This document shows, piece after piece, positions 4,759 through 62,664 of a stretch of DNA of 64,000 bases (its first letter is position 1; every line of letters begins with the position of its first letter). The stretch comes from Thermacetogenium phaeum DSM 12270 (GTDB lineage: Bacteria; Bacillota; DSM-12270; Thermacetogeniales; Thermacetogeniaceae), in contig NC_018870.1 of assembly GCF_000305935.1 (NCBI RefSeq), positions 141,942 through 205,941 of the forward strand. Reading direction: 5' to 3'. Below the pieces are notes generated by a model. That model searched no databases and had not been told where the DNA came from. It saw only the letters and a list, made by a program, of their open reading frames with translations. Position numbers and translations under genes: made by a program.

Positions 4759-4811
4759 GATAAGTTTTTTGCGCAAACATATGAAAGTACTGAAAATTGA
4801 ATAGGATATTT

Positions 4812-4981
4812 TCTACGAGCCCGCTTTCCTAAGGCAGTGCTATGGGGGCGAGGCCTGGGGCTTAAGACCCCACAGGGTTGTAGGAGAAATCTTGCAGCCT
4901 CCCTGTTATGGAAAGTAGAAAAATAGGTTTTAAATGTGCTCCTGCATATTTTTCTACCTCCATACAGGCGCACATTTTTTA
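4812..4981 (+). promoter_or_regulatory. Moco/Tuco-type riboswitch with terminator
   Basis: The aptamer (about 4812-4920) begins CGAGCCCGC, contains CCTGGGG...CCCCACAGGG and ends with GCCTCCCTG-TATGGAAAG, the hallmark 3' block of the Moco RNA motif. A GAAA-loop hairpin (TGTAGGA/TCTTGCA) varies by wobble pairs from the second copy at 8590. A terminator follows: AATGTGC-CCTG (4933-4944) with CAGGCGCACATT (4965-4976) and a T-run. TATGGAAAGTAGAAAAATA can instead pair with TATTTTTCTACCTCCATA inside the terminator as an anti-terminator. The ligand-bound aptamer would hide that strand and stop transcription of mobA. Relative to the E. coli moaA RNA, the part between CCTGG and CAGGG is short, which may point to the tungsten variant. 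Confidence 0.85.
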
Positions 4982-8548: not shown

Positions 8549-8589
8549 ATTAATAACGAACAAGCGATATGTTTCTAATTAAATAAAAC

Positions 8590-8749
8590 TCCGAGCCCGC
8601 CTTCCTAAGGCAGATGCTACGGGGGCGTGGCCTGGGGCTTACGACCCCACAGGGTTGTAGGAGAAATCCTACAGCCTCCCTGTATGGAAAGGAGGAGATG
8701 CTCAGGCATGTTTCTGTGGCCACTTTCCATACAGGAACATGCCTTTTTT
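8590..8749 (+). promoter_or_regulatory. Second Moco/Tuco-type riboswitch with terminator
   Basis: It has the same layout as the copy at 4812: CCGAGCCCGCC, CCTGGGG...CCCCACAGGG, a GAAA-capped hairpin TGTAGGA/TCCTACA, then GCCTCCCTGTATGGAAAGG. The terminator is AGGCATGTTTCTGT (8704-8717) with ACAGGAACATGCCT (8731-8744) and a T-run. CCTGTATGGAAAG (8679-8691) is a perfect 13-nt complement of CTTTCCATACAGG (8723-8735) in the terminator's 3' arm. The anti-terminator and the aptamer therefore share a strand, which predicts an OFF switch. It controls the XdhC/FmdE/metal-transport operon. Confidence 0.88.
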
Positions 8750-12763: not shown

Positions 12764-13891
12764 GTGATCCGCTTGAACAGAATTAAGAATTTTATGGTAA
12801 CAGCCTTGGTGTTTGTTCTGTTGTGTTCGCTGGTAACTGGTTGCGGTTCCAGAGAGATAAGCGAGAAGAATACCGGAAGTGTAGAGACCTCCCAACAGCG
12901 GTCTGGGGAGAGGGTGATAACCGACCATGCTGGAAGAACTGTGAAAATTCCGGCAGAGGTAGATAAGGTTTATTTCACAAGCCCTATCGCTCAAATTATG
13001 GTGTATACCCTCGCACCCGAGAAGATGGCTGGGTGGACAATGCAGCTGACGGATAAGATGAAAAAGTATATCCCTCCCCAATACCAGGAGCTGCCGTATC
13101 TCGGTGGTCAGCAAATGAGCGCAAAGCTAAATATCGAAGAAATACTGAGGGTAAAACCTGATGTCATATTTTCAGTAGGACCCGACCCCATCAGCGATAC
13201 AACTAAAAGCGAGGCCGACAAACTCCAGCAGCAGCTAAACATTCCGGTAGTTGTTGTGGACGGGGATATAAATAGTACTGAAAAGGCATATGCATTTTTG
13301 GGACAGATTCTGGGAGTTGAGGATAGGGCAAAAAAACTTATAGATTATTGTAACCGGACAATGAAGGATGTTGTCGAAAAGACCAAATCCATACCCAAAG
13401 AAAAAAGAGTGAGGGTATATTATGCCGAAGGCCCCGAAGGACTTGCCACTGAACCCAAGGGATCAAGCCACGCCATACTGCTGGATATCGTGAATGCTGA
13501 AAATGTTGCTGAAGTTCAGCAAAAAGGTGGGAGCGGAATGAGCAATGTGTCTTTGGAACAGGTTTTGAAATGGAACCCCGATGTAATTCTGACATGGAGT
13601 ACCGACCGTGGAGGTGCCTGTAACAAAATACTTACGAGTCCCGACTGGAAGAATATTAAAGCAGTAAAAAACGGAAAAGTATATGAAATACCCAATTATC
13701 CTTTTAACTGGTTTGACCGGCCGCCTTCAGTGAACAGGTTCCTGGGTCTGAAATGGCTTGCTGCCATTTTGTATCCGGATGTTTATCAGGTGAACCTTGT
13801 AAAAGAGGTTAAAGAATTTTATAAGCTTTTCTATCATGTGGATTTAACAGATGATGATGTCAAAGAGCTCCTTAAGGATGCCGGATTCTGA
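12764..13891 (+). CDS. Substrate-binding lipoprotein, BtuF/FepB/MolA-type
   Basis: A 375-residue lipoprotein. The signal peptide ends in the lipobox LVTGC (Cys about residue 27), so it would be anchored outside the membrane. The body is a periplasmic-binding fold with VITDHAGRTVKIPAEVDKV, IEEILRVKPDVIFSVGPDP and VYEIPNYPFNWFDRPPSVNR. It pairs with the two ABC genes before it. The GTG start has GGAGGGA upstream. Homologues bind iron chelates, B12, molybdate or tungstate; context favours an oxyanion. The stop codon abuts the left side of a large structured RNA. Confidence 0.85.
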   Translation: MIRLNRIKNFMVTALVFVLLCSLVTGCGSREISEKNTGSVETSQQRSGERVITDHAGRTVKIPAEVDKVYFTSPIAQIMVYTLAPEKMAGWTMQLTDKMKKYIPPQYQELPYLGGQQMSAKLNIEEILRVKPDVIFSVGPDPISDTTKSEADKLQQQLNIPVVVVDGDINSTEKAYAFLGQILGVEDRAKKLIDYCNRTMKDVVEKTKSIPKEKRVRVYYAEGPEGLATEPKGSSHAILLDIVNAENVAEVQQKGGSGMSNVSLEQVLKWNPDVILTWSTDRGGACNKILTSPDWKNIKAVKNGKVYEIPNYPFNWFDRPPSVNRFLGLKWLAAILYPDVYQVNLVKEVKEFYKLFYHVDLTDDDVKELLKDAGF

Positions 13892-13894
13892 TTT

Positions 13895-14191
13895 GACTGC
13901 AGACCACCCATGCCGCTAGCGGCGGCACCAACAGAGCATGAAAATACCCGACGGGTCTACCGGCGAGCGACCTATGGAAGGCCGGGTAACAGGACAGGCG
14001 AAGCGAGGATGACAGGTCGGGATGCGAGTACAGACACCTGAAGAGTTTCGATGGAATGGATTCGCTGCGAGGCCAAACGCTGCAATTGGCAGAAGCAATT
14101 CGCAACTTGTTACGCAGCATTCCAGAGCTGTCCCGAAGCGAGCCGTAGTCCTGTCCGGCCTGGAATCGGGAGTCGAGCGGTAGACCGGCGG
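13895..14191 (+). ncRNA. Large structured RNA, HEARO/omega-RNA-like
   Basis: No gene fits this 300-base gap. The sequence instead folds as nested long-range helices: GGTCTACCG (13954-13962) with CGGTAGACC (14178-14186), GGCC (13980-13983) with GGCC (14157-14160), GGACAGG (13992-13998) with CCTGTCC (14150-14156), TCGGGA (14017-14022) with TCCCGA (14131-14136), and TGGAATG (14052-14058) with CATTCCA (14118-14124). Local hairpins include GCCGCTAGCGGC and ACCCGACGGGT. It ends just before GTGA. HEARO RNAs (the omega-RNA of IscB elements) are of similar size and insert next to ATGA or GTGA. No iscB gene follows, so this would be an ORF-less copy. The family name is tentative; the structure is clear. 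Confidence 0.6.
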
Positions 14192-14252
14192 GTGAACTTG
14201 ACGTATTTTCAGGGCAGATTGCTTAGTTGAAAATTGAAGGAGGAGAAATGAG

Positions 14253-15233
14253 ATGGAGGATCTTTATGGAAGAAGAATCGATTACCTGCGTGTCTCGGTA
14301 ACCGACCGCTGCAACCTGAGGTGCATCTACTGCATGCCGCCGGAAGGGGTAAAGCCCAAGGAACATAACGATATCATTCGTTTCGAAGAGATCTTAGTAG
14401 CAGCGGAGGTGGCTCTGGAGCTGGGTATTAACCGCTTCCGGTTGACAGGTGGCGAGCCCTTAGTCAGAAAGGGGATTATCCCGTTCATCGGCGCTTTATC
14501 TATGCTGCCCGGAATAGAAGATGTATCTCTTACCACTAACGGAATTTTGCTTTCCCAAATGGCTGGACAGTTAAAGGAGGCGGGGATCCGACGGATCAAC
14601 ATTAGCCTTGATACCATGAACCAAAAGACTTATCGGGAGCTTACCAGAGGGGGAGACTTAAGGGCTGTCTGGGAGGGGATAGAGAAAGCCCTGGAAATCG
14701 GATTTGATCCTGTAAAGATCAACATAGTAGCCCTAAGGGGTATAAACGACGAAGAGTGGGTGGATTTTGCCCGCCTCACTATGGACAAGCCTTTACACAT
14801 TCGCTTCATCGAGCTCATGCCCATCGGCGCAGGCTGGCAAATGGCGAGAGAGAACTACGCCTCCTGCCGGCAGGTTAGGGGGGTGATAGAAAGAGAGCTG
14901 GGCGAACTCACCCCGGTCATTGACGTCGAGGGAAACGGCCCTGCCGAATATCAGCGATTGCCGGGAGCGGTTGGTACGATCGGCTTCATCCATGCCGTCA
15001 GCGAGCACTTCTGCGGGAGCTGCAACAGACTGCGCCTTACAGCAGATGGTAAACTGCGGCCCTGCCTTTTTGACCGAAGGGAGATCGACCTGAAAGGAGC
15101 AATCCGGAGAGGAGCGGGCGGAGAAGAACTGCAACGGCTATTTAGAAAGGCCGTGCAACTTAAGGCGGCAAACTACCAGATGGCTGCGCGAGCTGGCAAA
15201 GGTGGGCGGTCGATGGTCCAAATAGGGGGATAA
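14253..15233 (+). CDS. moaA: GTP 3',8-cyclase MoaA
   Basis: A 326-residue radical-SAM enzyme. The N-terminal cluster CNLRCIYC (around residues 23-30) is followed by FRLTGGEPLVRKG. A C-terminal 4Fe-4S motif CGSCNRLRLTADGKLRPCLF and a final Gly-Gly match true MoaA. It converts GTP to the cyclic intermediate of precursor Z, the first step of the pterin part of the cofactor. AAGGAGGAG precedes the ATG. GC is higher than in the flanking transporter genes. The partner moaC lies 4 kb downstream. Confidence 0.95.
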   Translation: MEDLYGRRIDYLRVSVTDRCNLRCIYCMPPEGVKPKEHNDIIRFEEILVAAEVALELGINRFRLTGGEPLVRKGIIPFIGALSMLPGIEDVSLTTNGILLSQMAGQLKEAGIRRINISLDTMNQKTYRELTRGGDLRAVWEGIEKALEIGFDPVKINIVALRGINDEEWVDFARLTMDKPLHIRFIELMPIGAGWQMARENYASCRQVRGVIERELGELTPVIDVEGNGPAEYQRLPGAVGTIGFIHAVSEHFCGSCNRLRLTADGKLRPCLFDRREIDLKGAIRRGAGGEELQRLFRKAVQLKAANYQMAARAGKGGRSMVQIGG

Positions 15234-46072: not shown

Positions 46073-46542
46073 CCACCATCCCCCTCTCCCGGTCTTGAAA
46101 GCCGATGCTGCGGGCCCCTTGGGGATTTTTTGTTCCTCTCTTGGTGCCGCCGGTGGCGGCATGGCGGTCTTCTAAGAAAAGCCGCCTCGTTCCCGGCTGC
46201 GCTCTCCTTTCGTTCCGCTCCGGCTCCGCCGGAAGATGAATTCCTTTCCGGAAAAGCTTCCGGGGCTTTACTTCTGAGTCTTTTCAGACGTCGGCCGGCT
46301 TCTAACTTTTAGCCGAAAAGCGGAAAACGCCGGAGGCCCTCAGCGTCGTCAGATTGGAGCCCGTTACCTTTGATTATATTTAGATTATAACAGATGTCGG
46401 TCCGGAAAACAGTTTAGTCCTTGTGAATCTTCTGAGGGCGAAAATTGTTGAAAAAGTGCAGAGAAGCTCCCCGATTTGCAGTATAATTTTAAGAAACTGC
46501 ACAGGTATGAGCATAAAACTTCGGGCAATGGGGGGTGAAACT

Positions 46543-62411: not shown

Positions 62412-62512
62412 AGGCAGTGCTGGACACGAACGTGCTGGTCTCCGCCCTCCTGTTCCCTGGCGGGGCCCCCGACCGGGTGTTCAGGGCCGCCTTGAGGACC
62501 GCCGGATGCTGA
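62408..62512 (+). pseudogene. Truncated PIN toxin
   Basis: 34 residues, MKAVLDTNVLVSALLFPGGA and PDRVFRAALRTAGC, are the perfect start of a VapC/PIN protein (Asp in LDTNVLVS), but a TGA ends it. A normal PIN protein has about 130 residues; the rest is not found downstream. Confidence 0.75.
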
Positions 62513-62664
62513 CCCGCATGTCCGGTGGTGTGAGAGGACGGGGGCTAGCCGCTCCCTCCTACTCGATGGCAGCTATAATCCCCCCTGCATGAGATAGTCT
62601 CGAAACATGGGCTCAATGAACTTATACAATCTTCGACCGCTCTTCTCGATGGTCGCTTTTTCAA

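What the first reader, a model, noticed from the sequence alone, without database searches (positions are those of the whole stretch)
13895..14191. HEARO/omega-RNA-like structured RNA between a metal-transport operon and moaA
Five nested long-range helices plus local hairpins fill a 300-base gap with no protein. The right side runs into GTGA, a known insertion site for HEARO RNAs, the guide RNAs of IscB. There is no iscB gene next to it, so it may be an ORF-less guide RNA used by a nuclease elsewhere. Because it sits inside a cofactor cluster it may also have been taken over as a leader for moaA.
Basis: partly seen in the sequence, partly recalled or inferred. Interest (0 to 1): 0.62.

Follow-up and report, generated by a model that had tools for sequence, protein, structure and literature searches.

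The report
IS110-ended mobile repeat carrying structured RNA
The 300-base gap before moaA holds one of several dozen copies of a small gene-less mobile element that shares its ends with RNA-guided IS110 insertion sequences in the same bacterium; inside is a conserved, folded RNA related to the orphan TwoAYGGAY family, so it is not a HEARO guide RNA, but it ties an RNA of unknown function to mobile DNA.

Summary
The structured gap is real but is not HEARO/omega-RNA. The genome matches Thermacetogenium phaeum DSM 12270 (exact size). Window 13901-14217 is one of about 26 near-complete copies (83-95% identical) of a dispersed element, plus internally deleted copies and a sister type; the left-end module alone occurs 74 times (control 1). 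Its two ends are shared with two IS110-family insertion sequences of the genome (PF01548, PF02371; NCBIfam 'RNA-guided transposase'). The element and IS-A are inserted at the same base of CRISPR repeats, giving natural empty sites with an AG core. The element has no ORF and, unlike IS-A/IS-B, no donor guide of its own: best read as a non-autonomous element moved in trans. The interior is an RNA: 10 of 28 pairs show compensatory changes across genera (0-2 in slid controls). A model of it finds 24 of 398 Bacillota genomes, often multi-copy, and cross-matches Rfam TwoAYGGAY (RF01731); the sister type passes RF01731's cut-off. HEARO: no match; IscB: none found, but that control was silent. Function of the RNA is open. 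T. phaeum type-1 copies lie mostly upstream of co-oriented genes (20/22), moaA here. The GTGA is internal, not a boundary.

The parts
13901..14217 (+). whole non-autonomous element, core AG to core AG (type 1, about 318 nt family)
   Evidence: boundaries from alignment of about 25 genome copies and from CRISPR-repeat insertions
13901..13902 (+). left copy of the AG core dinucleotide
   Evidence: AG conserved at the left edge in 30 of 35 solo sites; empty site CCTCATAG^GTACG in CRISPR repeats
13901..13947 (+). LE module shared with IS-A and IS-B: AGACCACCCATG-hairpin-ACCAACAGAG-CATGAAAATAC
   Evidence: 74 genome sites of its 16-mer at <=2 mismatches, 1 for the reversed control; same module at IS110 elements
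13912..13926 (+). LE hairpin GCCGC-TAGCG-GCGGC
   Evidence: 97% of cells paired, 3 of 5 pairs with changes on both sides over 14 LE sequences, IS-A and IS-B included
13939..13947 (+). TGAAAATAC, left arm of the end-to-end helix
   Evidence: exactly complementary to 14203-14211
13954..13962 (+). H1 5' arm GGTCTACCG (pairs with 14178-14186)
   Evidence: replaced by unrelated but complementary arms in other genera: CCAGGCAAGC/GCTTGCCTGG, TGGATTCC/GGAATCCA
13972..13981 (+). conserved CTATGGAAGG motif at the start of the core
   Evidence: invariant or nearly so in A2/A3; corresponds to the first positions of the RF01731 model in type 2
13979..13995 (+). H2 5' arm AGGCCGG-GTAAC-AGGAC (pairs with 14148-14161)
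   Evidence: compensatory pairs in A3
13997..14025 (+). H3 5' arm GGC-GAAGCGAGGAT-GACAGGTCGGGATGC
   Evidence: pairs with 14117-14144; 5 pairs with compensatory change
14026..14102 (+). variable apical domain, with two consecutive AYGGA motifs GATGGAATGGATTC at 14050-14063; part of the segment missing in the internally deleted copies
   Evidence: alignment of copies; deleted copies lack query 121-222 = 14000-14101
14117..14144 (+). H3 3' arm GCATTCCAGAGCTGTCCCGAAGCGAGCC
14148..14161 (+). H2 3' arm GTCCTGTCCGGCCT
14178..14186 (+). H1 3' arm CGGTAGACC
14203..14217 (+). RE GTATTTTCAGGGC-AG, right end with right core; CAGGGCAG equals the 8-nt donor-guide-like stretch of the IS-A leader
14253..15233 (+). 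downstream gene moaA (Radical_SAM + Mob_synth_C), 35 nt after the element
12764..13891 (+). upstream gene, periplasmic metal-chelate binding protein (Peripla_BP_2)
46136..46151 (-). a second LE motif in the window, from a decayed copy with little of the interior left
   Evidence: L086

Best explanation
It is a copy of a non-autonomous mobile element (MITE-like, without an ORF) bounded by the left and right ends of IS110-family insertion sequences. An IS110 recombinase made elsewhere in the genome (IS-A or IS-B), loaded with its own bridge-RNA-like leader RNA, would recognise the element's RE-AG-LE junction as donor and insert it at AG-containing targets. The interior is not that guide: it is a conserved folded RNA of the TwoAYGGAY superfamily, carried as cargo and, at this locus, probably transcribed as part of the metal-transport/moaA message. 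Shown by computation: multi-copy, exact ends, shared ends and shared insertion site with IS110, RNA-level covariation, kinship with RF01731. Inferred: mobilisation in trans, transcription. Unknown: the biochemical role of the RNA.
For: About 26 near-full copies at 83-95% identity in one genome, with sharp common ends and unrelated flanks. LE module present 74 times vs 1 in control. IS-A: LE AGACAATCATGTCACCTCCGGTGACACCAACAGAGGATGAAAAT, RE TAATTTTCAGGGCAG, with a transposase hitting PF01548 1.3e-38, PF02371 8e-23, NF033542 'IS110 family RNA-guided transposase' 1.3e-89, and IS621 and ISCro4 in the PDB; IS-B alike. Both IS-A and type-1 copies sit in CRISPR repeats at GTTTCAATTCCTCATAG^GTACGCTGAAAAC, a natural empty site. 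13 of 48 mapped sites directly abut another element, RE-AG-LE. The IS-A and IS-B leaders hold 8-nt copies of their own RE+core that differ in step with it (CAGGGCAG / CAGGGTAG), as expected of a left donor guide. Donor ends alone with bridge RNA in trans recombine in the published systems (PMC11208160, PMC11187229). RNA core: 94% of cells paired, 10 of 28 pairs with double-sided change vs 0-2 when slid. R1 matches TwoAYGGAY loci over the same span, RF01731 matches an R1 locus, and the sister type 2 passes the RF01731 cut-off.
Against: No transposition was observed, and no closely related genome offers an exact empty site at this locus: six relatives have the upstream transporter genes without the element, but moaA does not follow there. 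Insertion sites are weakly conserved (G at -2 in 25/35, C/T at -1 in 31/35, core AG), looser than described for bridge-RNA-guided IS110 elements. The right donor guide could not be identified convincingly in IS-B. The window copy itself scores nothing against RF01731.
Confidence: 0.8

Rival explanations
1. HEARO/omega-RNA of an IscB/IsrB-type nuclease, here without its ORF.
For: Large nested structure, multi-copy, ORF-less, GTGA near the 3' side.
Against: No RF02033 match in the window at E<=10 or genome-wide; no PF14239 match (control silent); GTGA is internal and not conserved; ends are those of IS110 elements.
Confidence: 0.03
2. The interior is itself a bridge RNA: the element carries its own targeting RNA and only lacks the recombinase.
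For: Same ends as IS110 elements whose leaders are bridge-RNA-like; strongly structured; the interior of type 1 is conserved.
Against: No stretch equal to RE+core or complementary to core+LE beyond chance in most of 16 copies (four copies with RE ATGACAG have a 7-nt match that is part of the constant core), whereas IS-A (p 0.004) and IS-B (p 0.02) have one. Copies with the apical domain deleted and copies with almost no interior also exist. The same core occurs in Moorella-type genomes without IS110 ends.
Confidence: 0.08
3. A cis-regulatory leader domesticated for moaA, or a metabolite-binding RNA (riboswitch).
For: 35 nt upstream of moaA on the sense strand; 20 of 22 type-1 copies with a gene call of >=150 aa lie upstream of a co-oriented gene; true Moco riboswitches are nearby at 4801 and 8577.
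Against: Copies stand before many unrelated genes, in CRISPR arrays and next to each other; in other genomes downstream orientation is unbiased (17/36); type 2 shows no bias (6/13).
Confidence: 0.15
4. CsrA-binding (sponge) RNA spread by transposition (a statement about the cargo, compatible with the best explanation).
For: TwoAYGGAY has been proposed to bind CsrA (PMC4333381); the genome has csrA; type 1 keeps GATGGAATGGATTC and type 2 has GACAGGATGTC in a predicted hairpin.
Against: Only motif-level evidence; the AYGGAY hairpins of the Rfam model are replaced or degenerate here; no binding data.
Confidence: 0.2

Closest known systems
IS110 family insertion sequences (IS621, ISEc21 etc.) with bridge RNA / seekRNA
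   Same: Shared LE and RE sequences with two IS110 elements of this genome, AG core on both sides, same insertion point in CRISPR repeats.
   Different: No transposase gene, no donor-guide match in the interior; interior is an unrelated folded RNA; loose target choice.
MITEs of bacterial insertion sequences (e.g. MITECca01 of an IS982 element, PMC9769881)
   Same: Short, multi-copy, ORF-less, ends of a parent IS present in the genome.
   Different: No classical terminal inverted repeats; here only a 9-bp end-to-end complement plus an LE hairpin; and the interior is a conserved RNA, not a shrunken IS.
TwoAYGGAY RNA (Rfam RF01731, clan CL00106)
   Same: Type 2 passes the cut-off; type-1 model and RF01731 match the same loci; multi-copy in many Clostridia.
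   Different: Type 1 itself gives no RF01731 match; its two central AYGGAY hairpins are replaced by a longer H3 + apical domain.
HEARO / IscB omega-RNA (RF02033)
   Same: Large structured, multi-copy, sometimes ORF-less mobile-element RNA.
   Different: No model match, no IscB found, no GTGA/ATGA boundary.

Membership tests
HEARO (RF02033) | matches the covariance model | tested here: not met
   no match at E<=10 in the window or genome
HEARO (RF02033) | IscB/IsrB gene in the genome | tested here: inconclusive
   no PF14239 match, but the control genomes did not ring either
HEARO (RF02033) | 3' edge abuts ATGA/GTGA | tested here: not met
   the element continues about 22 nt past GTGA; GTGA varies among copies
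IS110-family element ends | LE and RE shared with an IS110 element | tested here: met
IS110-family element ends | core dinucleotide at both junctions, precise insertion | tested here: met
   CRISPR-repeat empty sites and 30 of 35 left AG
IS110-family element (autonomous) | DEDD/Transposase_20 protein inside | tested here: not met
   no such ORF within 13901-14217; it is in IS-A, IS-B
IS110-family element (autonomous) | own bridge RNA with donor guides | tested here: not met
MITE | ORF-less, multi-copy, parent IS in the genome | tested here: met
MITE | mobilisation in trans by the parent | not testable with these tools
   needs a transposition assay
TwoAYGGAY (RF01731) | score at or above the gathering cut-off | tested here: not met
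   window copy: no match at E<=10; type-2 copies: 46-49 bits vs cut-off 43
TwoAYGGAY (RF01731) superfamily | homology over the same span | tested here: met
   R1 hits at RF01731 loci, E 1.7e-8 to 3.4e-4; RF01731 hit at R1 locus L136, 49.6 bits
TwoAYGGAY (RF01731) | two hairpins with AYGGAY loops | tested here: inconclusive
   type 1 has GATGGAATGGATTC in the apical domain but not the two model hairpins

The most novel reading that the evidence does not exclude
TwoAYGGAY-superfamily RNAs are a mobile RNA module that travels inside several unrelated transposon shells: IS110 ends in Thermacetogenium and relatives; an inverted-repeat element (CAGACTGTAGACAAA...TTTGTCAACA), flanked on both sides by the same locus-specific hairpin, in another Clostridia lineage; and still other outer stems in Moorella-like genomes. 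The RNA would then be the unit that selection keeps, for the elements or for their hosts.
Probability: 0.35. Interest if true: 0.8.

Novelty: new variant of a known kind. Interest (0 to 1): 0.58.

Why it matters
TwoAYGGAY has been an orphan RNA since 2010. Finding it and a new relative inside IS110-ended elements, in many copies and with compensatory evolution, turns its unknown function into testable questions: which recombinase moves it, which protein binds it, and whether it protects or regulates the operons it lands in. It also gives a natural example of IS110 ends apparently used in trans on a small cargo, which the bridge/seek RNA papers read here show with built donors.

Tried and rejected
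HEARO, IscB. A decayed protein gene: only minus-strand ORFs of 60-82 aa, while compensatory changes follow the RNA pairing. IS200/IS605-type ends: considered because of the LE hairpin, dropped when IS110 transposases were found between the same ends. REP/RAYT: GTAG-like start plus hairpin, dropped for the same reason (from knowledge, not tested). Bridge RNA in the interior: tested and not supported. Clean empty site at this locus in relatives: transporter orthologues found, but moaA does not follow. Sigma-70 promoter or terminator in the region: none on the sense strand.

Full report
WHAT IS THERE. The stretch lies between a Peripla_BP_2 gene and moaA in a 2,939,057-base single-contig genome, the size published for Thermacetogenium phaeum DSM 12270 (PMC3551663). 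It folds well beyond chance (z -4.0). Searching its own genome shows that it is a dispersed repeat: about 26 near-complete copies at 83-95% identity, and about a dozen partial ones, several of which lack exactly the segment 121-222 of the query, roughly the inner part of the RNA. Aligning the copies with their flanks gives sharp ends: left nnAG-ACC..., right ...TATTTTCA(G/T)(G/A)(G/A)CAG. In the window these are 13901 and 14217.

THE ENDS. The left 45 bases form a module (short lead, hairpin, ACCAACAGAG, ATGAAAATA) that occurs 74 times at two or fewer mismatches to its 16-mer, against 1 for the reversed control. Reading those sites shows four kinds of filling between the same ends: type 1 (ours), type 2 (about 275 nt), minimal forms of about 60-110 nt, and full insertion sequences. 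The last, IS-A (three copies, one interrupted by another IS) and IS-B, encode IS110-family transposases. The LE hairpin is kept by double-sided changes between these elements and relatives in other genera. In CRISPR arrays, IS-A and type-1 copies are inserted at the same base of the repeat GTTTCAATTCCTCATAG^GTACGCTGAAAAC, which gives the empty site and an AG core on both sides, as in IS110 recombination. Of 48 mapped sites 13 abut another element directly. Over 35 solo sites the target is only loosely defined: AG core, G at -2, C/T at -1, T/A-rich around -10 to -7.

WHO MOVES IT. The IS-A and IS-B leaders contain an 8-nt copy of their own right end plus core, CAGGGCAG and CAGGGTAG, which change together. 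That is what a left donor guide of a bridge RNA should look like; the right donor guide is clear in neither (a 7-nt match in IS-A, none convincing in IS-B). The window element ends in CAGGGCAG, an exact match to the IS-A guide-like stretch. Published work shows that donor ends without transposase or RNA gene can be recombined with both supplied in trans (PMC11208160; PMC11187229). The interior of type 1 has no such guides beyond chance in most copies. I therefore infer mobilisation in trans; this was not observed.

THE INTERIOR. Diverged relatives were found in other genera of the family. Aligned, the core keeps 94% of cells paired over 28 pairs, 10 of them with changes on both sides, against 0-2 in slid versions; the outer helix H1 is replaced wholesale by other complementary arms. 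A covariance model of the core (R1) finds 24 of 398 Bacillota genomes in 13 genera, often in several copies; an exact pattern names Moorella, Desulfoscipio, Desulfofundulus, Pelotomaculum, Desulfovirgula and Syntrophomonadaceae MAGs among others, plus a few likely chance hits outside Bacillota. Type 2 passes the Rfam cut-off for TwoAYGGAY, and R1 and RF01731 recognise the same loci, so type 1 is best read as a new divergent branch of that superfamily. RF01731 itself is present in 51 of the 398 genomes, mostly multi-copy.

OTHER SHELLS. In G135 the five copies fetched share CAGACTGTAGACAAA-like ends (four clearly, one diverged), and each is flanked on both sides by the same locus-specific hairpin. 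This suggests, but does not prove, that the RNA has moved between element types.

ORIENTATION. In T. phaeum, type-1 copies with a clear gene call lie upstream of a co-oriented gene in 20 of 22 cases (p about 1e-4), type 2 in 6 of 13. In other genomes the bias is towards a co-oriented upstream gene instead (28 of 38, p 0.005) and absent downstream (17 of 36). Gene calls were crude, so this is a lead only: it fits an RNA that is made in the sense direction with neighbouring genes.

LIMITS. No expression data, no transposition data. The literature search covers open-licence papers only, so an earlier description of these repeats elsewhere cannot be excluded.

Noticed in passing
L105, L106, L023, L024 (genome about 2.440-2.464 Mb): Four IS110-type insertions (two IS-A, two identical type-1 elements) sit in CRISPR repeats at the same base, roughly 8 kb apart.
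   Followed up: partly
L289-L293 (genome G135): TwoAYGGAY copies lie in inverted-repeat elements flanked on both sides by near-identical locus-specific hairpins (terminator-like), as if a hairpin target had been duplicated on insertion.
   Followed up: partly
window 4801-4934 and 8577-8710: Two Molybdenum/Tungsten (Moco) riboswitches, 81 bits each, lead operons close to the element.
   Followed up: no
L082 866-985, L046 1-63: Moco riboswitch sequences also lie near a type-2 copy and near a type-1 relative in G010; possibly coincidence.
   Followed up: no
window 62497-62567: Group II intron match (RF00029, 41.6 bits) near the right end of the window.
   Followed up: no
L112-L119: A second IS110-family IS with eight copies and different ends; one copy interrupts IS-A in L106.
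   Followed up: no
L056 (G015), L063 (G004): Mosaic elements: a type-1 core nested in a type-2 shell, and a type-2-like insert in a type-1 shell, so layers of the RNA appear to be exchanged as modules.
   Followed up: partly
L049, L058, L064 (G020, another family): Minimal LE-RE elements with almost no interior also occur outside the host family.
   Followed up: no
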